DNA of 64,000 bases, taken from positions 62,001 through 126,000 of the forward strand of contig NZ_ABCK01000006.1 in the NCBI RefSeq assembly GCF_000170755.1, given 5' to 3'. Positions 6,903-14,529 of the stretch are shown in pieces. The translations under genes were made by a program, and so were the position numbers. Below the pieces are notes generated by a model. It was not told the DNA's origin. It did not search any database and saw only the letters and a program-made list of their open reading frames with translations. Numbering within the stretch: position 1 is the first letter of the stretch; each line of letters opens with the position of its first letter. Source of the stretch: Lentisphaera araneosa HTCC2155 (GTDB lineage: Bacteria; Verrucomicrobiota; Lentisphaeria; Lentisphaerales; Lentisphaeraceae).

Positions 6903-7220
6903 TTATAGATTCAGATAATAATTCCAGTCAGTCCAAGTAGCACATTTTGATTCTAATTTTGTATTCAATTTATGTATGCTTTCTTCAAACTCTTCATTAT
7001 CTGTAGTATCGGAAGATATATCTATATACCATTTATAATATTTGCCCTCGATATCGTCCCCACCATAATTTTTTAAAATTTCCACTTTCAAATTATCAGT
7101 ATTAAAATCTGTAGAATAATTAAAAAAATTAAATCGAGTTTTTATATTCAAAAATTCTTTAATAGTTTGACATAATCGACGTTCAGATATTTTATCGCAA
7201 AAGATTACAGCTGTTTTCAT
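6903..7220 (-). CDS. Small hypothetical protein
   Basis: 105 aa, not recognised. It has no signal peptide or membrane segment and is rich in Asp, Glu, Asn and aromatic residues, with a basic first third. It has a strong ribosome-binding site (GAGGAGG, 6 bp before ATG), and starts 10 bp after the stop of the gene upstream, so these two are translated from the same message. It is the last gene of a group of three small genes downstream of the STAND sensor gene. Confidence 0.55.
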   Translation of the reverse strand: MKTAVIFCDKISERRLCQTIKEFLNIKTRFNFFNYSTDFNTDNLKVEILKNYGGDDIEGKYYKWYIDISSDTTDNEEFEESIHKLNTKLESKCATWTDWNYYLNL

Positions 7221-7230
7221 ATGATCCTCC

Positions 7231-7557
7231 TCAAGATACTTCAGTTTTAAAAATAGTTTTTGTTAAACATTGCAAGAAATTAATATGTTCAAGAGCTATG
7301 ATTTCTATAGTGTTTGTAGTCTTATATGATTCTAAAGTTATAAGTGTATTATTTGATCTATATGATTTTACCTTCCCAAAAATAGAAAAAAGAAATGGCT
7401 TAACAGCATGTGTTTTCGACAACTCTAGACTCATTTGAGCATTAACTTTGGAAAAAGTAATTTTTAATGACTTGTAGCTATCTTTCACTATTTGTGTAAG
7501 ATTACCTTGAAAGTAATCCGAGACATTCATGCTAGCTTTCATAAAAACTGTTTCCAT
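7231..7557 (-). CDS. Small hypothetical protein
   Basis: 108 aa, not recognised. The sequence has alternating hydrophobic residues typical of a small beta-rich domain (SLKITFSKVNAQMSLEL; PFLFSIFGKVKSY; LITLESYKTTNTIEIIAL) and could be a PilZ-like or similar barrel, but no diagnostic motif is present. A ribosome-binding site (AAGAGG) precedes the start. It lies between two other small unknown genes, with gaps of 10 and 93 bp. Confidence 0.5.
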   Translation of the reverse strand: METVFMKASMNVSDYFQGNLTQIVKDSYKSLKITFSKVNAQMSLELSKTHAVKPFLFSIFGKVKSYRSNNTLITLESYKTTNTIEIIALEHINFLQCLTKTIFKTEVS

Positions 7558-7650
7558 TGTTAACCTCTTAAATACGATTCCATATTAATAAACTATTGTT
7601 TTACGAGCTCAGTAGCAAGAATCAAAGGAGTTCATTTAGAGCTCAGTTGT

Positions 7651-8184
7651 TTATAAATGGTCAATCTGTAAAAAGTGAAGTTTAGAATCAGAATCTTGAA
7701 AAACACTTAATTTGAGTGGGAGTGGGGAGTCCTCTAAGTCATTCATTAGAGCTATGCAAGAAAAATTAAATTTAGTTCCCTCGTTCATGTACTCTAAATC
7801 ATGACCAAGAGGAAGATACTTAACATAATGAGTATCTTTAATGAATTGAAGAAAAACTTTGTTAGAAAGTTGACAGAATTCTTTTGTTAATTTTTTCCAA
7901 GAGTGGAACGGTGATATTTGTAAAATTTTAATTTTCCCGGGAACATTTTCAGACAGTTCAATCAAGAAAAATCTTATTTTACTTTTTATATAGCGATAGC
8001 ATCGGAATTTCTTAATTTTATTACACTTGGTGTTAATGCTCTCAGAAAGCGGGGTGTAGTTTTGACCAGTACTTTTTTTAATTTGTTTTTTAAATAGATC
8101 GGCTCTGTGAGAGTTAATCGTTGAGAATGATGTCCAATTGCAGCGGGGATCTACTATAGTGGATTGGTTTGCTATCGTACTCAT
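7651..8184 (-). CDS. Hypothetical protein
   Basis: 177 aa, not recognised. No signal peptide. The N-terminal 75 residues are very basic (KKQIKKSTGQ, KCNKIKKFRCYRYIKSKIR), followed by a mixed alpha/beta part. A good ribosome-binding site (TTAGGAG) lies 8-9 bp before the ATG. It is the first gene of the three-gene set 8184-6903 and is separated from the STAND sensor gene by a 465-bp gap that probably holds its promoter. Confidence 0.5.
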   Translation of the reverse strand: MSTIANQSTIVDPRCNWTSFSTINSHRADLFKKQIKKSTGQNYTPLSESINTKCNKIKKFRCYRYIKSKIRFFLIELSENVPGKIKILQISPFHSWKKLTKEFCQLSNKVFLQFIKDTHYVKYLPLGHDLEYMNEGTKFNFSCIALMNDLEDSPLPLKLSVFQDSDSKLHFLQIDHL

Positions 8185-8649
8185 ATTTGAAGACTCCTAA
8201 TATTTTGGAAGAGTTAAAAAAATAATAGTTTTTTATTTAAAACCCAAATTTATTAATGGTTAAGTTAGAGGTCAGATACAATTCCTTTTAGTTCGTGGAA
8301 TAGAACTGTATGTTTTTCATGTTAAAAAATATCACCTAAAGTTGTAGGTGTTGTTTAAATAAAAAGATGAAATGATTTCAATACTATATTATTATTAGAG
8401 TCTATGAGCTAAAGGACTTTGTAATGTTATTGAAAAGAAAGGGGGGTATTACGGTTCTACTGAGTTGAGAAGTGGCTAATGAGGGGATAGATATCAGAAT
8501 CTTTACAGCCTGGTATAATATTGCGATATGCAGACTAAGTGGGTAATAAGTTGCATGGTTAAGATCTTAAATAAACTAGTATTTAGACTTGTTCCTCAAG
8601 CTGATATAGTAAAATACTATGCTTGAATATAGATCAGATGGGAGGGTGA
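8185..8649. other. Intergenic region between sensor gene and small-gene operon
   Basis: 465 bp, AT-rich, without a credible gene. It contains a small hairpin (CACCTA/TAGGTG, 6-nt loop, 8333-8350) and a TTAGAGGTCAG motif near 8267 that recurs near 12882 and, less exactly, near 7634. The promoter for the minus-strand small genes should lie here. Confidence 0.4.
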
Positions 8650-11600
8650 TTAGATGCCCCAGCTACCTTCCCAGCGCTTTTTTGATTTTTCTAAAAAAAT
8701 ATTCCATTCATTCTCAGACCTGGATAGTGGGTAGGGAGAGGGTGCTATGGGTTGTTCAGAAGACCATTGGACATGGAATTCTCCATCATTTCCAACTTGA
8801 GCTATGTGTGTGTGTCTCCATATATGTTGATTTTTTTCATCGACATAGGCTATGCCACCAGGTCCGTAATAGGTTAAACCTTTAATGGCTTCAGTTATTT
8901 TTTCAGGAGAAAAAGTTTTGCATTTTTGAACAGCTTTAGCCCAAAGTTTAACTCCCACATAAGCCGACTCCATGTACCCACTAATGCGTTCATTTTTACC
9001 ATATTTCGATTTAAATTTTTGTATAAAGTCATTATTGCTATAGTTATCATTATTTTGGAAATAACTAAATATACTATAAAGCCCTTGGCAATGGGTAATA
9101 GGAATATGATCAATATCTCTATCTGACAAAACTAAGGAAACTAGATTTATTCTACCATCCTTATTGATGCCCGATTCATGGAATGTTTTTAGAAAAGCTT
9201 TGTTACTTTCTATTGAGGCTAATGTTAATATAATTACAGAAGGATTAGCTTGTTTAATACCTTCAATGATATCTTCAAAATCACTTGAACCAATAGGACG
9301 ATAATCTTCGCCAACTATCTTTCCATCATATTCGTGTACAGCGTCTTTGAGTATTTCATTTGTAACCACTGGATAGACATAATCTGAACCAACAAAATAA
9401 AAAGAATCTGCATTAGTTGTATTCATAAGCCAATCAATAATGGGTAAGGCTTGGAGATTGGACGTGGGACCTGTGTAGATGATGTTTTTAGATGACTCTA
9501 GGCCTTCGTAATGATAAGGGTATACAAGTAGGCTATTTCTTTTCTCGACAACAGTTTTTACCTGTTTTCTGGTGGATGATGTAGAGCATCCAAAAATACT
9601 TGTAATGTGATGATCATTGATAATTTTTTCTGCTTGCTCACGGAATATGTATTCATCTGATTGGCCATCATAAATTTCGTATTCAATACTGTGATCTAGT
9701 AGTCCTCCATTTTTATTTATTTCTTCAAAGGCTATTATGCAAGATTTGATCACGCCTTCTTCGTGTTCTTTGAGAGGGCCTGTAACAGAATGTAACAAAG
9801 CTATCTTATGTTGCTTCTTTAGTTGGCAATCTGTACTCGGCTGGTGGGGAGAATCTAAGTTTTGAATACTAGTCTTGAATACGCTGGATGTTTGGTATTG
9901 AAGTTTAGTATGTGTATTATTGAGTGAGAATGTACATTTTTTTATGTAATTTTGATATTTTTTTATATTATTTACTACCTCAGCACTCTCATTGCCGGTA
10001 AGGAGTTTTTTGGCGGCTTCTAAATGTTCTTCAGACAGCTCGAGTCGCTGATTAACCGCATATATTTCTGTGAGTTCGAGTCGAATTTCTAATTTATCTT
10101 GCTTGTTTTCAGCTTCTTGTAAAGCTTTTTCTAAATATTGAGTCGCTTTGGCGGGAAGATCAAGAACCTTCAATAAAACCCCTTTTAAATAATACAGAGA
10201 ATAAAGGTTTTTCTTTCCTGGGAGGGATAAGGCAACATCAACTTGATTTAGGGCTTCACAATAATCGTGTTTTTCATATAGATTTTTAGCAAAATCATTA
10301 ATTGCACTCAAGGCTTCTTCCACTTGGTGTGCCTTGCGTAAATGGAAAGTGAATTTTAGTTGATCTTTGTCTTTATAAAAAGTTGAGGCTAGTTCATGTA
10401 GTTCTTTTTTTAACTCTTCAGTAATATGCTGATAAATACCTTGTCTTATTAAGTCGTGATTAAATATAAAGTGCTTGTCTTTGACTTGTTGAAGAAAATT
10501 ACAATTGACTAATTCCTGTGGCGTATAGCCTCTAATTTTAAAAATTTCCGCCACTTCTTCTAGTTCAAATTCATGGCCTAAAATGGCCGCGCTACTTAAA
10601 AATGTGACTCCATCTTTACTAAGGCGATTCAATTCTTGTTTAATAAGAGAGTTCAAAGATTGTGGGATATTACTCTCGTTATAAATGGTTTTCATATCTA
10701 TTAAAGATTGAAAGAACAATGGGTTCCCATTGGATAATTTAATATATTTTTCATAGACCTTTTTTGGGAACTTTTTATCTGCGCCAATCATGGATCTGAG
10801 TTCATCATCATTTAAAGGTGATAGATTGAATAACTCTAGAGGCGTATTAAGTACGGAGTTGTTCCATATTTCATAAATTGGATTATTTATCAAGCGACTC
10901 GATAGTATAATGACAAGGGGCCAATTTCTAGCTTCATGGGTTAAGCTTTGTATAGTAGTGATAATATCTGTAGAGGCCCAGTGGATATCTTCTAAAATAA
11001 GGCATATCGGTGACTGTGTATTTCGAATAAGAACAAATAAGAGTTCTAACTCATAACTCTTCCTTTCGTGATAATTAATAGTTTTAAGAATACTTGCACT
11101 CTCATCAAAAAGAGCCAATAAAGCTCTTTTGTGTTCGTAACTTAGGTTCTCTTCTTGAGCAAAGCATTTGAGGCATTCGGCATTATTACTGTCACTTTTA
11201 TGAGAATGACATCTGCTGTGCTGTGTGACTGTCTTCAGTCTGTGATGGATGAATTGTCGAATTAAGTCTTGGAGAATTGTTTTTCTATTTGTTACGTTAT
11301 CATAAATAGGAAGGCGAAAATTTAAAAAGTTAGCATTTTGTGCATAATCAGTTAAATTATTTATAAAACTGGATTTCCCAATCCCTGCTTCTCCCTGGAT
11401 GTAGATAACGCTACCTTTCTTTTCGTTATTCACTCGGGCAAGTGTCGTGCAGGCGCGGTGCAATTGTTCGCTGCGAGATAAAGGATTTTTATGGTGACTT
11501 TGTTCAGAGGGTGGACTTTCTTTTATTTGTAAGTCATCAAGACTAACCTTAAGAATACTCGCAATATCTTGGGCGGTACGAAAATAAATTTTATTGCTAG

Positions 11601-11745
11601 ATTCGGCTCTTTTTAAAGTAGAAATTGAAAGGTAACAGCCCATTTGCTGACTTTTTGATGAAAACATCTCGCGGCTCAAGCATTGCTGAGCTCTTAACTC
11701 TTTTATTTTCTGACCATCAAGTCGAATTCTACCATTCAATTCCAT
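8650..11745 (-). CDS. XRE-HTH / STAND ATPase / TPR protein with C-terminal UrtA-like ligand-binding domain
   Basis: 1031 aa with no signal peptide or transmembrane helix, so cytoplasmic. Domains in order: an XRE-type helix-turn-helix at about 11-75 (KIKELRAQQCLSREMF, STLKRAESS, DIASILKVSLDDL); an AAA_16/STAND ATPase at about 90-440 with Walker A GEAGIGKSS (118-126) and Walker B LILEDIHWA (249-257); TPR-like helices at about 450-600; and a periplasmic-binding-protein domain of the UrtA/AmiC type (Peripla_BP_5) at about 645-1000, recognised from IALLHSVTGPL, AFEEINKNGGLL, IFGCSTSSTRK, YPYHYEGLES, YTGPTSN and VGSDYVYP. UrtA binds urea outside the membrane; here the fold sits inside the cell and probably acts as the ligand sensor of a transcription regulator, much as MalT uses its TPR-type sensor. 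Ligand and target genes are unknown. An insert at 176-195 (C-H-S-H ... C-L-K-C) could bind zinc. Confidence 0.88.
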   Translation of the reverse strand: MELNGRIRLDGQKIKELRAQQCLSREMFSSKSQQMGCYLSISTLKRAESSNKIYFRTAQDIASILKVSLDDLQIKESPPSEQSHHKNPLSRSEQLHRACTTLARVNNEKKGSVIYIQGEAGIGKSSFINNLTDYAQNANFLNFRLPIYDNVTNRKTILQDLIRQFIHHRLKTVTQHSRCHSHKSDSNNAECLKCFAQEENLSYEHKRALLALFDESASILKTINYHERKSYELELLFVLIRNTQSPICLILEDIHWASTDIITTIQSLTHEARNWPLVIILSSRLINNPIYEIWNNSVLNTPLELFNLSPLNDDELRSMIGADKKFPKKVYEKYIKLSNGNPLFFQSLIDMKTIYNESNIPQSLNSLIKQELNRLSKDGVTFLSSAAILGHEFELEEVAEIFKIRGYTPQELVNCNFLQQVKDKHFIFNHDLIRQGIYQHITEELKKELHELASTFYKDKDQLKFTFHLRKAHQVEEALSAINDFAKNLYEKHDYCEALNQVDVALSLPGKKNLYSLYYLKGVLLKVLDLPAKATQYLEKALQEAENKQDKLEIRLELTEIYAVNQRLELSEEHLEAAKKLLTGNESAEVVNNIKKYQNYIKKCTFSLNNTHTKLQYQTSSVFKTSIQNLDSPHQPSTDCQLKKQHKIALLHSVTGPLKEHEEGVIKSCIIAFEEINKNGGLLDHSIEYEIYDGQSDEYIFREQAEKIINDHHITSIFGCSTSSTRKQVKTVVEKRNSLLVYPYHYEGLESSKNIIYTGPTSNLQALPIIDWLMNTTNADSFYFVGSDYVYPVVTNEILKDAVHEYDGKIVGEDYRPIGSSDFEDIIEGIKQANPSVIILTLASIESNKAFLKTFHESGINKDGRINLVSLVLSDRDIDHIPITHCQGLYSIFSYFQNNDNYSNNDFIQKFKSKYGKNERISGYMESAYVGVKLWAKAVQKCKTFSPEKITEAIKGLTYYGPGGIAYVDEKNQHIWRHTHIAQVGNDGEFHVQWSSEQPIAPSPYPLSRSENEWNIFLEKSKKRWEGSWGI

Positions 11746-11994: not shown

Positions 11995-12762
11995 CTATTT
12001 CAGTTTGGAATAATACTCAGTGAATGGCGTGGTTTTTGATATTCTAAGCCACCCAGAAGTGCAACAATTATCATTTTTTCTTAACATTATATTATCGAAT
12101 AGATTTTTATAATGAACCCAAAATTGTTTTTGATTACCTTCGTTAACTTCAATTAGTAAAACATTTTCGGTTTCAAAATCATATGAAGCCATAACGCTAA
12201 AAGTATCATGCTCAGCTTCTGCGCCATAAAATGACTTTTGGTCAATATTAAAGAGTAATATATCATTGGATTGACTATATGATTTTAAGTGTGATTGAAA
12301 TAACTTTAGTGTTTGTGAATAATCAATGGTTTTACTTTCATGATATTGTGAGACTAAAAGATTAATAGATTCATGAATATCATTAAAGGAAATCTCTTTA
12401 TAACTTTTAATTTCTGTACTTAGATTTTTCTGTACAAATTCATTATTTTCTACAACAAGGGATTCAATATTGTAATTTACTATTCTTCCCCGTTTTTCAT
12501 TATCGCTTATTTCGTTTGTTAAAATCTGAATTTTGTCTCTTTGGGTGTCGTTAGAGTCATATTTAATTAAAGTAAATTGACTATTGTCAGTACTTTCCAA
12601 ATTGTATGTCTCTATATTATCTGGTTCTTGCTCTTGAATATCATAAGCGTTTAAATTGACGACGTGATCATATTTGTTTAGGGCTAATTTACTAGCTGTT
12701 TCATTGATACCACAACTAGTTAAAAACACATTTAAGATTATACCTATAATTACATATTTCAT
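11995..12762 (-). CDS. Hypothetical lipoprotein
   Basis: 255 aa from the ATG at 12762, which sits 5 bp after a GGAGG ribosome-binding site; a second ATG 12 bp upstream overlaps that site and is less likely. The N-terminus MKYVIIGIILNVFLTSC is a lipoprotein signal with lipobox LTSC. The remainder is acidic, Asn/Ser-rich and not recognised; it contains a Cys pair near the end (DNCCTSGW). It lies upstream (in minus-strand order) of the STAND sensor gene with a 249-bp gap that holds no visible gene. Function unknown. Confidence 0.65.
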   Translation of the reverse strand: MKYVIIGIILNVFLTSCGINETASKLALNKYDHVVNLNAYDIQEQEPDNIETYNLESTDNSQFTLIKYDSNDTQRDKIQILTNEISDNEKRGRIVNYNIESLVVENNEFVQKNLSTEIKSYKEISFNDIHESINLLVSQYHESKTIDYSQTLKLFQSHLKSYSQSNDILLFNIDQKSFYGAEAEHDTFSVMASYDFETENVLLIEVNEGNQKQFWVHYKNLFDNIMLRKNDNCCTSGWLRISKTTPFTEYYSKLK

Positions 12763-12963
12763 GTTTACCTCCATATCCTTTCTTGCTTTATTTTTCCAAT
12801 TTTTACTTTCCTAAGTGATTGGTTTATATAAAAAGCTATAAGTCGACAGAGTATGACACAATCATATGATGGGGTCATTTAGAGGTCAGTTTTTAAAATT
12901 GGGAATTACATCGAGCAGATATTGTTGTTCTGGAAAGGCGGGTTTGATATAAGTCAAATAAGC

Positions 12964-13065: not shown

Positions 13066-14529
13066 TTAACTGACCCCTTTCTTCTGATCTTTATTTACCT
13101 TGAGAGGGATGCTTTGATTGCTTCGCCCATAATCATCATCATAACGAACGATATCATCTTCTTCAAGGTAATTACCACTCTGAACTTCAATGAGCTCCAA
13201 GGGGATTTTACCGGGATTCTCGAGACGATGCAGTGTGCCGATGGGGATATAAGTGGACTGGTTTTCACTGAGTAAAATATTTTCCTCACCATTGGTGACG
13301 AGCGCAGAGCCTTTCACGATGACCCAATGTTCAGCTCGGTGAAAGTGCTTTTGTAAAGAAAGTTTTGCACCGGGTTTAACTGTAATATGCTTGACTTTAA
13401 AGCCAAAATCTTGATCGATGTTACAATAAGAACCCCAAGGACGATTAACAGTTTGATGCGTTCGTGCTTCAGGTCGTTTGAGCGCTTCTAATTGCGTGAC
13501 AATTTGCTTGACGTTCTCACTTTCGTCTTTGTGAGCAATCAGTAAAGCATCGTCGTTATTGACAATAATGAGGTCTTTGACACCTACAGTGGCACAGAGT
13601 TTTTTGTTTGAGCGGATATAGTTATTTTGACTATTTTGCAGGAGTACATCTCCTATGCAGCTATTGCCGTCCTCGTCGGTCTCACTAATTTTTGCTAATT
13701 CTTTCCAAGTACCGACATCCGACCAGGCAGTATTTAAAGCTAACATTTTGATGCGTTTGGATTGTTCCATTATCGCATAATCAATTGATTCACTGGAACA
13801 GTTTTCGAAAGCTGCTGTATCCGGAGCAATAAAGCTGCCTTCCACATGTTTAAGTTCATAAGAATCACATACATTTTGATGCATAGCGGGACGGAATTTA
13901 CGCAACTCAGAAAGCAAGACATCCGCTCGGGCTAAAAACATCCCAGAATTCTAAAAGTAATTTGGCCTATTTAAGTATTCTTCAGCTTTGCTAAGGCAGG
14001 GTTTTTCTACAAAGCAATCAACGGTTTTTATGGTGTTGTCAGTCTCTTCACATCGGATATAGCCATATCCAGTAGCAGGGTGTGTGGGTGTGATCCCAAA
14101 AGTAATGATAGCACCTTCTTCAGCTGATTGACGAGCCGCTTCTACAGTTTCACAAAATTTATTGTCATCCTGAATTTTATGGTCGGAAGCTAAAACCAAT
14201 AATAAGGCTTCCGGGTCCGATGCTTGGACTTCCAGCGCGGCGAGAGCGATAGCAGGAGCGGTGTTGCGGGCACTGGGCTCTAAGATGATTTTAGGAGATT
14301 CAACATTTATCTGTCTCAATTGCTCTGCAATTAGGTAGCGATGGTCTTTATTGCCAACAACGATGAGGTCTCCCGGCTTATTAATATTCTTGACTCTACT
14401 TACCGTTTCTTGTAAAAGGCTTTCGTCCCCACAAAGTGGCAAAAATTGCTTGGGATATGTGGCGCGGGACATGGGCCATAAGCGCGAGCCACAACCACCT
14501 GACATAATGACAATATTTAAATTCTTCAT
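13066..14529 (-). pseudogene. manC: Mannose-1-phosphate guanylyltransferase / mannose-6-phosphate isomerase, split by in-frame TAG
   Basis: Two reading frames in the same phase (14529-13951 and 13941-13066) together make a normal-length type II GMP-PMI of about 487 codons. The first part has the pyrophosphorylase signature MSGGCGSRLWPMSR and FVEKP; the second has the cupin-type isomerase domain (RPWGSYCNIDQDFGFKVK, HFHRAEHWVIVKGSA). They are separated by a single TAG codon at 13953-13951, exactly where the family has Trp in the F-W-N-S-G-M-F motif, so one G-to-A change (TGG to TAG) explains the break. The enzyme makes GDP-mannose, fitting the exopolysaccharide operon at the left end. An internal ATG follows nine bases after the stop, so two separate polypeptides are possible but the nucleotidyltransferase domain would be cut. 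A suppressor tRNA or sequencing error are alternatives. Confidence 0.85.

What the first reader, a model, noticed from the sequence alone, without database searches (positions are those of the whole stretch)
8650..11745. Cytoplasmic STAND regulator with a captured UrtA-like binding domain
The sequence shows an XRE-type HTH, a STAND ATPase with intact Walker A and B, TPR-like helices and a C-terminal domain with UrtA-type motifs (YPYHYEGLES, YTGPTSN, VGSDYVYP) but no export signal. UrtA normally binds urea in the periplasm for an ABC transporter. Established knowledge: STAND proteins such as MalT use a C-terminal sensor to control ATP-driven assembly. Inference: this is a one-component sensor for urea, a short amide or an amino-acid-like ligand, or a signalling ATPase of a defence type. 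I cannot tell which genes it controls.
Basis: partly seen in the sequence, partly recalled or inferred. Interest (0 to 1): 0.8.

Follow-up and report, generated by a model that had tools for sequence, protein, structure and literature searches.

The report
Amide-type sensor fused to STAND regulator
A marine Lentisphaera bacterium makes a 1031-residue gene regulator that joins a DNA-binding head, an ATP-driven switch and, inside the cell, a ligand-binding domain normally found outside the inner membrane; it probably switches on its own neighbouring genes in response to a small molecule that is not urea.

Summary
Window 8650-11745 (minus strand) is one intact 1031-aa ORF: a weak Cro/C1-type HTH, an AAA_16/STAND ATPase, a helical TPR-like stretch and a full Peripla_BP_5 domain (E=4.9e-106), with no signal peptide or TM segment. 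The same order occurs in three Lentisphaera species, so it is not a frameshift artefact.

(1) It is very unlikely to be a urea sensor: four of eight residues reported as invariant in urea-binding UrtA (Trp120, Gln144, Asn246, Ser274) are replaced in all three orthologues, and the genus has no UrtA, no UrtB above cut-off and no urease. (2) There is a candidate regulon: an 11-bp-period direct repeat (CTGAvCTCTAAnTGAACC) lies exactly 8 nt upstream of a -35/-10 promoter before three neighbouring genes in each species. Exact pattern matches genome-wide (3, 4 and 2) all lie at this locus. This resembles the direct-repeat operators of AfsR/PimR, which supports a STAND transcription activator with a local regulon. 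A divergent site in two species faces a tryptophan-2-monooxygenase-like gene, a family whose characterised members form amides.

Best reading: a MalT/AfsR-like activator with a captured UrtA/AmiC-type cytoplasmic sensor. The ligand is unproven, perhaps a substituted carboxamide.

The parts
8650..11745 (-). STAND regulator with C-terminal UrtA/AmiC-type domain, 1031 aa
   Evidence: orthologues
11524..11745 (-). N-terminal Cro/C1-type HTH (residues 1-74)
   Evidence: HTH_3 matches all 7 family members, best E 4.5e-4; alignment
10906..11478 (-). AAA_16/STAND NTPase domain (residues 90-280); Walker A at 11371-11394, Walker B at 10984-11001
   Evidence: Pfam 4.9e-11; motifs
10714..10734 (-). GxP-type motif SNGNPLF (residues 338-344)
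   Evidence: invariant core GNPLF in four sequences
9928..10323 (-). paired-helix, TPR-like region (residues 475-606)
   Evidence: model; Pfam TPR sub-threshold
8722..9807 (-). Peripla_BP_5 domain (residues 647-1008), pocket residues S721, S723, Y742, H745, E747, Y789, A843/S844, V872
   Evidence: Pfam 4.9e-106; Foldseek to UrtA 8tg1 TMt 0.89 and AmiC 1pea 0.88; pocket table
12870..12889 (-). candidate operator CTGACCTCTAAATGACCCCA before the lipoprotein gene; -35 at 12856-12861, -10 at 12833-12838
8256..8275 (-). candidate operator CTGACCTCTAACTTAACCAT before the 177-aa gene; -35 at 8242-8247, -10 at 8219-8224
7627..7646 (-). candidate operator CTGAGCTCTAAATGAACTCC before the 108-aa/105-aa genes; -35 at 7613-7618, -10 at 7590-7595
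11995..12774 (-). upstream lipoprotein, partial phytochelatin-synthase-like, catalytic region apparently lost
   Evidence: PF05023 1.3e-5; conserved partner of all four STAND-PBP genes; intact paralogues
7651..8184 (-). conserved 177-aa protein of unknown function
   Evidence: 47% and 45% orthologues at the same place in two species; no Pfam hit
7231..7557 (-). 108-aa ORF, by its start and position probably a decayed remnant of a 320-aa weakly GH18-like gene
   Evidence: position and N-terminal resemblance to L042:14209-15171; GH18 E=0.017 only. tblastn of the 320-aa protein gave no window hit at E<=0.01, so the link is inference
6903..7220 (-). conserved 105-aa protein of unknown function, same operon
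   Evidence: 64-65% orthologues

Best explanation
A ligand-responsive STAND transcription activator that works like MalT or AfsR. In the resting state the ATPase core is held inactive. A small molecule in the cytoplasm closes the C-terminal UrtA/AmiC-type clamshell, ATP binds the core, protomers assemble head to tail, and their HTH domains contact direct repeats one helical turn apart, upstream of the -35 box of its neighbour genes, and recruit RNA polymerase. Shown: the domains, the conserved cluster, the shared repeat and its fixed spacing to a promoter, the altered pocket. Inferred: that this protein binds the repeat, that it activates, that assembly is ATP-driven, and the ligand. The ligand is probably not urea; a substituted carboxamide or amino-acid-derived compound is the most likely class.
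For: Domains and cytoplasmic location. Gene cluster conserved in three species, with the lipoprotein partner also beside the paralogue. Direct repeat with 11-bp period, then exactly 8 nt, TTG (11 of 12), 17 nt, TA-rich -10 in 12 promoters; three of these (two facing the monooxygenase gene, one before a lipoprotein gene at the paralogue locus) were not used to build the matrix. Exact matches genome-wide 3/4/2, all at the locus, against about 0.07 expected per genome; one-mismatch matches elsewhere mostly fall inside coding regions. In the window's species the shared 20-mer exceeds all 300 shuffles. STAND activators AfsR and PimR use 11-bp direct repeats (PMC10936776; PMC5930380). Pocket: Ser122, Tyr141, Glu146 and Tyr190 equivalents kept; Trp120, Gln144, Asn246, Ser274 replaced. 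The monooxygenase-like neighbour (4iv9 8.2e-89) belongs to a family with amide-forming members (PMC5832979).
Against: No binding, expression or ligand data. The motif was first seen by eye in aligned upstream regions and the search pattern was built from the same sites, so their recovery is circular; only the absence elsewhere and the three unused sites are independent. In L. profundi alone the shared motif does not exceed shuffles (211/300); in L. marina 14/300. Cro/C1-type HTHs usually bind palindromes as dimers. The HTH, TPR and core of the model are weak (mean pLDDT 62.5, 12 sequences, ATPase region below 50). The monooxygenase is absent from the window's species and broken in L. marina, so an amide product cannot be the general ligand source.
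Confidence: 0.65

Rival explanations
1. A urea-responsive one-component regulator that uses the UrtA pocket unchanged.
For: Best solved relatives are urea-binding proteins (8tg1, 7s6e, 7s6f, 8hic); Ser122, Tyr141, Glu146, Tyr190 equivalents kept.
Against: Trp120, Gln144, Asn246 and Ser274 replaced in all three orthologues but intact in nearly all other UrtA-like rows compared; mutation of Trp120, Gln144 or Asn246 strongly lowers or abolishes urea binding (PMC10392092). No urease and no UrtB above cut-off in the genus.
Confidence: 0.05
2. A repressor or a non-DNA-binding signalling STAND protein; the direct repeat belongs to another regulator.
For: HTH score is weak; no copy of the repeat lies upstream of the STAND gene itself; the related HTH in the H-NOX-linked genes has no such repeat nearby upstream.
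Against: It is the only transcription-factor-like gene common to the cluster in three species; repeats are confined to the cluster and a similar repeat lies beside the paralogue; the sites lie upstream of -35, the place of activators.
Confidence: 0.2
3. An anti-phage or self-defence STAND sensor (Avs-like) whose clamshell domain detects an invader product.
Against: N-terminal HTH in place of a toxic effector; PADLOC gives only a P-loop match at E=0.0072; no relatives in viral contigs; syntenic, vertically kept in a genus.
Confidence: 0.04

Closest known systems
AfsR and PimR (SARP-NOD-TPR activators of Streptomyces)
   Same: DNA-binding domain + STAND ATPase + helical repeats; operators are direct repeats with 11-bp period near promoters (PMC10936776, PMC5930380)
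   Different: SARP (OmpR-type) DNA-binding domain instead of a Cro/C1-type HTH; no periplasmic-binding-type sensor; afs box overlaps -35 whereas this repeat ends upstream of it
MalT / GutR (STAND activators)
   Same: inducer- and ATP-controlled STAND activator logic (as described in PMC10936776); own knowledge: MalT boxes are short repeats
   Different: their sensors are TPR-like helical domains; here a full clamshell ligand-binding domain is added
AmiC (amide sensor of the Pseudomonas amidase operon)
   Same: same fold and family, used as a cytoplasmic sensor (own knowledge), E=1.1e-45, TMt 0.88; also lacks the urea-specific Gln/Asn/Trp
   Different: AmiC is a separate protein that controls AmiR; here the domain is fused to a STAND ATPase and its pocket is different again
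UrtA (urea ABC-transporter binding protein)
   Same: closest sequence family, 34-38% identity, full-length match
   Different: no export signal, no transporter partners, urea residues replaced, below TIGR03407 cut-off

Membership tests
STAND transcription activators (MalT/AfsR type) | P-loop NTPase with Walker A and B and a GxP-type motif | tested here: met
   AAA_16 4.9e-11; motifs
STAND transcription activators (MalT/AfsR type) | DNA-binding domain in the same chain | tested here: met
   HTH_3 for all 7 family members, best 4.5e-4, though the window's own score is below the Pfam cut-off
STAND transcription activators (MalT/AfsR type) | helical-repeat sensor/arm | tested here: inconclusive
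   paired helices in the model, TPR models sub-threshold
STAND transcription activators (MalT/AfsR type) | operators made of direct repeats near the promoter | tested here: met
   binding itself not shown
STAND transcription activators (MalT/AfsR type) | inducer- and ATP-dependent assembly | not testable with these tools
   needs purified protein
UrtA | score over the curated UrtA cut-off | tested here: not met
   340.7 against 492.75 bits
UrtA | eight conserved urea-pocket residues | tested here: not met
   four of eight replaced
UrtA | export signal and UrtBCDE partners | tested here: not met
   no signal segment; UrtB below cut-off in all three genomes
AmiC | amide-type clamshell domain acting in the cytoplasm | tested here: met
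   fold and family, no signal; ligand not tested
AmiC | stand-alone protein paired with AmiR antiterminator | tested here: not met
   domain is fused to the STAND protein; no such partner seen among neighbours
Avs-type defence STAND | match to a known defence STAND model / N-terminal effector | tested here: not met
   only a P-loop match at E=0.0072; N-terminus is an HTH

The most novel reading that the evidence does not exclude
A STAND activator that reads a carboxamide formed from an amino acid: the captured clamshell domain has been re-shaped from urea to a larger amide, and in L. profundi it controls the monooxygenase that would make that amide.
Probability: 0.15. Interest if true: 0.7.

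Novelty: new variant of a known kind. Interest (0 to 1): 0.55.

Why it matters
Most STAND proteins have sensors whose ligands are hard to guess. Here the sensor is a clamshell domain with solved relatives, so the ligand can be screened, and a compact candidate operator set comes with it. That makes the whole path from ligand to ATP-driven assembly to promoter testable in one small system, and shows that a transport-type binding domain can be taken into a STAND protein.

Tried and rejected
Urea sensor: rejected on pocket residues and genomic context. Defence: PADLOC and viral contigs gave nothing useful. Frameshift artefact: rejected by orthologues. Shared operator with the H-NOX-linked HTH genes: no repeat found upstream of them. 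Wider regulon: one-mismatch sites elsewhere were followed in flanking ORFs; most lie inside coding regions and none looked like a promoter of a related gene. Search of other species for the fusion: genome-contig scan found only L. marina, but it used two short HTH peptides and is insensitive; plasmids had no record covering 80% of the query; of 388 genomes drawn from the phylum the full-length fusion was seen in Lentisphaera only, and a decayed copy in another genus of the family. Structure of the 177-aa neighbour: too poor to use (pLDDT 44).

Full report
Observation. The ORF 8650-11745 on the minus strand encodes 1031 aa without interruption. Pfam finds AAA_16 at residues 90-280 (4.9e-11) and Peripla_BP_5 at 647-1008 (4.9e-106). 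The UrtA model TIGR03407 matches strongly (8.5e-102) but stays under its cut-off, 340.7 against 492.75 bits. The best solved relatives are urea-binding proteins (8tg1 1.3e-79, 7s6f, 7s6e, 8hic) and AmiC (1.1e-45); Foldseek on the predicted model agrees (8tg1 TMt 0.89, 1pea 0.88). Walker A, Walker B and an NGNPLF motif are intact, and no hydrophobic segment reaches a usual membrane threshold. The HTH is weak on its own but is matched by HTH_3 in all seven relatives. The model as a whole is modest (mean pLDDT 62.5), good in the clamshell domain and poor in the ATPase core, so I use it only for the fold of the clamshell domain and the helix pattern.

Distribution. The window lies in a 6,023,180-base genome of 81 contigs. 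A genome of the same genus (G004) shares its contig length and locus with Lentisphaera marina IMCC 11369. That the window is L. araneosa and G005 is L. profundi is my inference from genome size and contig number, not a tool result; the species names are used below in that sense. Full-length orthologues occur in L. marina (60%) and L. profundi (62%), the latter with a second, 35% identical paralogue. In another genus of the family the gene survives only in pieces with several stops. Of 388 genomes drawn from the phylum the full-length fusion appeared only in Lentisphaera. The four intact fused clamshell domains form one clade (100/100), so the fusion probably arose once in this sample. The searches outside the phylum were limited, so I cannot say the architecture is absent elsewhere.

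Ligand pocket. A structure of Prochlorococcus UrtA with urea names nine residues near the ligand, eight of them conserved in UrtAs; mutation of Ser122, Gln144, Tyr190 or Asn246 strongly reduces or abolishes binding and W120A does not bind (PMC10392092). By alignment the fused domain keeps Ser122 (S723), Tyr141 (Y742), Glu146 (E747) and Tyr190 (Y789), and replaces Trp120 (S721), Gln144 (H745), Asn246 (A843 or S844, next to a one-residue insertion) and Ser274 (V872), identically in the three orthologues. The other UrtA-like rows in the comparison, including chemoreceptor-linked, phage-borne and membrane-anchored ones, nearly all keep the urea set; a small group (L051-L053) and AmiC differ in their own ways. 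The fused domain is the only Peripla_BP_5 protein in the window's genome and in L. marina, and both copies in L. profundi are fused. No UrtB reaches its cut-off and no urease alpha is found in the three genomes. Urea is therefore an unlikely ligand. The kept residues include those that contact the urea oxygen, so a compound with a carbonyl, such as a carboxamide with a side chain, is a reasonable guess and no more.

Neighbours. Three species share, around the fusion gene, an upstream lipoprotein, a 177-179-aa protein, a 108-320-aa gene and a 105-aa protein. The lipoprotein resembles only the C-terminal part of phytochelatin synthase (1.3e-5) and lacks the Cys and His regions that its intact paralogues elsewhere in the genus carry (CGVCS, GHFS); it looks like a degenerate enzyme, by inspection. 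Two members of the same lipoprotein family also sit beside the paralogue in L. profundi. The 320-aa gene of L. profundi has a weak GH18 match (0.017) and looks decayed in the other two species. L. profundi has in addition an intact flavin enzyme closest to tryptophan 2-monooxygenase (4iv9 8.2e-89; L-amino acid oxidase/monooxygenase 3we0 1.7e-64), broken in L. marina and missing from the window's species. Members of this enzyme family make an amide from an amino acid (PMC5832979, abstract).

Candidate operator. Aligning the upstream regions showed a shared 20-bp element, CTGAvCTCTAAnTGAACC, before the lipoprotein, 177-aa and 108-aa genes in all three species. It is a direct repeat of TGAnC at 11-bp distance. 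In 12 promoters the element is followed by exactly 8 nt, a TTG-type -35 (11 of 12), 17 nt and a TA-rich -10. With a matrix from the nine first sites, the three window sites are the best in 64 kb (25.5-27.3 bits, next 15.1; shuffled sequence gives 0.25 sites of 15 bits or more per 64 kb). Sites not used for the matrix were found facing the monooxygenase gene in L. marina (23.3) and L. profundi (12.5) and before a lipoprotein gene at the paralogue locus (17.9); another strong hit there (23.8) lies in three tandem units of the repeat upstream of a 92-aa ORF, without the usual -35 spacing. Genome-wide, the element with TTG at the fixed distance occurs 3, 4 and 2 times without mismatch, always at this locus, against about 0.07 expected per genome. 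One-mismatch matches elsewhere are about as frequent as those of the reversed control pattern and mostly fall inside genes. Caveats: the element was first noticed by eye and the pattern was built from these sites; within single species the shared 20-mer beats all 300 shuffles in the window's species, 286 of 300 in L. marina and does not stand out in L. profundi.

Mechanism. AfsR and PimR, which are STAND or large-ATP-binding activators, bind direct repeats of 11 bp, one helical turn, so that monomers sit on one face of the DNA (PMC5930380; PMC10936776). [quoted passage not shown] The protein described here has the parts for the same scheme, with the clamshell domain as the inducer sensor. That it binds the repeat, that it activates, and that ATP drives its assembly are inferences. 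The position of the repeat, roughly -63 to -44 from the likely start if the -10 is placed as usual, suits an activator better than a repressor.

Verdict. The architecture is real and conserved, the urea reading is unlikely, and a compact local regulon is the best supported function. As a system it is a new variant of STAND transcription activators, with a sensor domain of the UrtA/AmiC family.

Noticed in passing
L054:10157-11493, L055:8683-9949, L056:9970-11239: A gene pair in all three Lentisphaera genomes: an H-NOX protein (HNOB 1.5e-40 in L054) followed by an HNOBA-like protein (7.5e-7 in L054) that carries the same HTH family at its C-terminus; possibly an NO-responsive regulator.
   Followed up: partly
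L047:9409-12815, L048:7494-10921, L050:9719-11101: In other Verrucomicrobiota a UrtA-like lipoprotein with an intact urea pocket lies beside a chemoreceptor gene (MCPsignal 3e-29, checked in L047), suggesting a chemosensory role.
   Followed up: partly
L080:4917-6203, L081:4914-6203, L083:4932-6203: UrtA-like genes with intact urea residues on contigs from the viral collection, between genes that look phage-like.
   Followed up: no
window 13066-14529, minus strand: A mannose-1-phosphate guanylyltransferase-like gene is split by one in-frame TAG stop; family assigned by reading, not by a domain search.
   Followed up: partly
window 23251-53868: Seven Acido-Lenti-1 RNAs and two group II intron ends.
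   Followed up: no
L045:7283-10738: In another genus of the family a membrane-anchored UrtA-like protein, the nearest relative of the fused domains in the tree, follows a 673-aa membrane protein without a Pfam match.
   Followed up: partly
L064, L067, L065, L061, L062, L068: Other lipoproteins of the phytochelatin-synthase family in Lentisphaeraceae; five of the six loci show complete-looking genes with CGVCS/CGICS and GHFS motifs.
   Followed up: no
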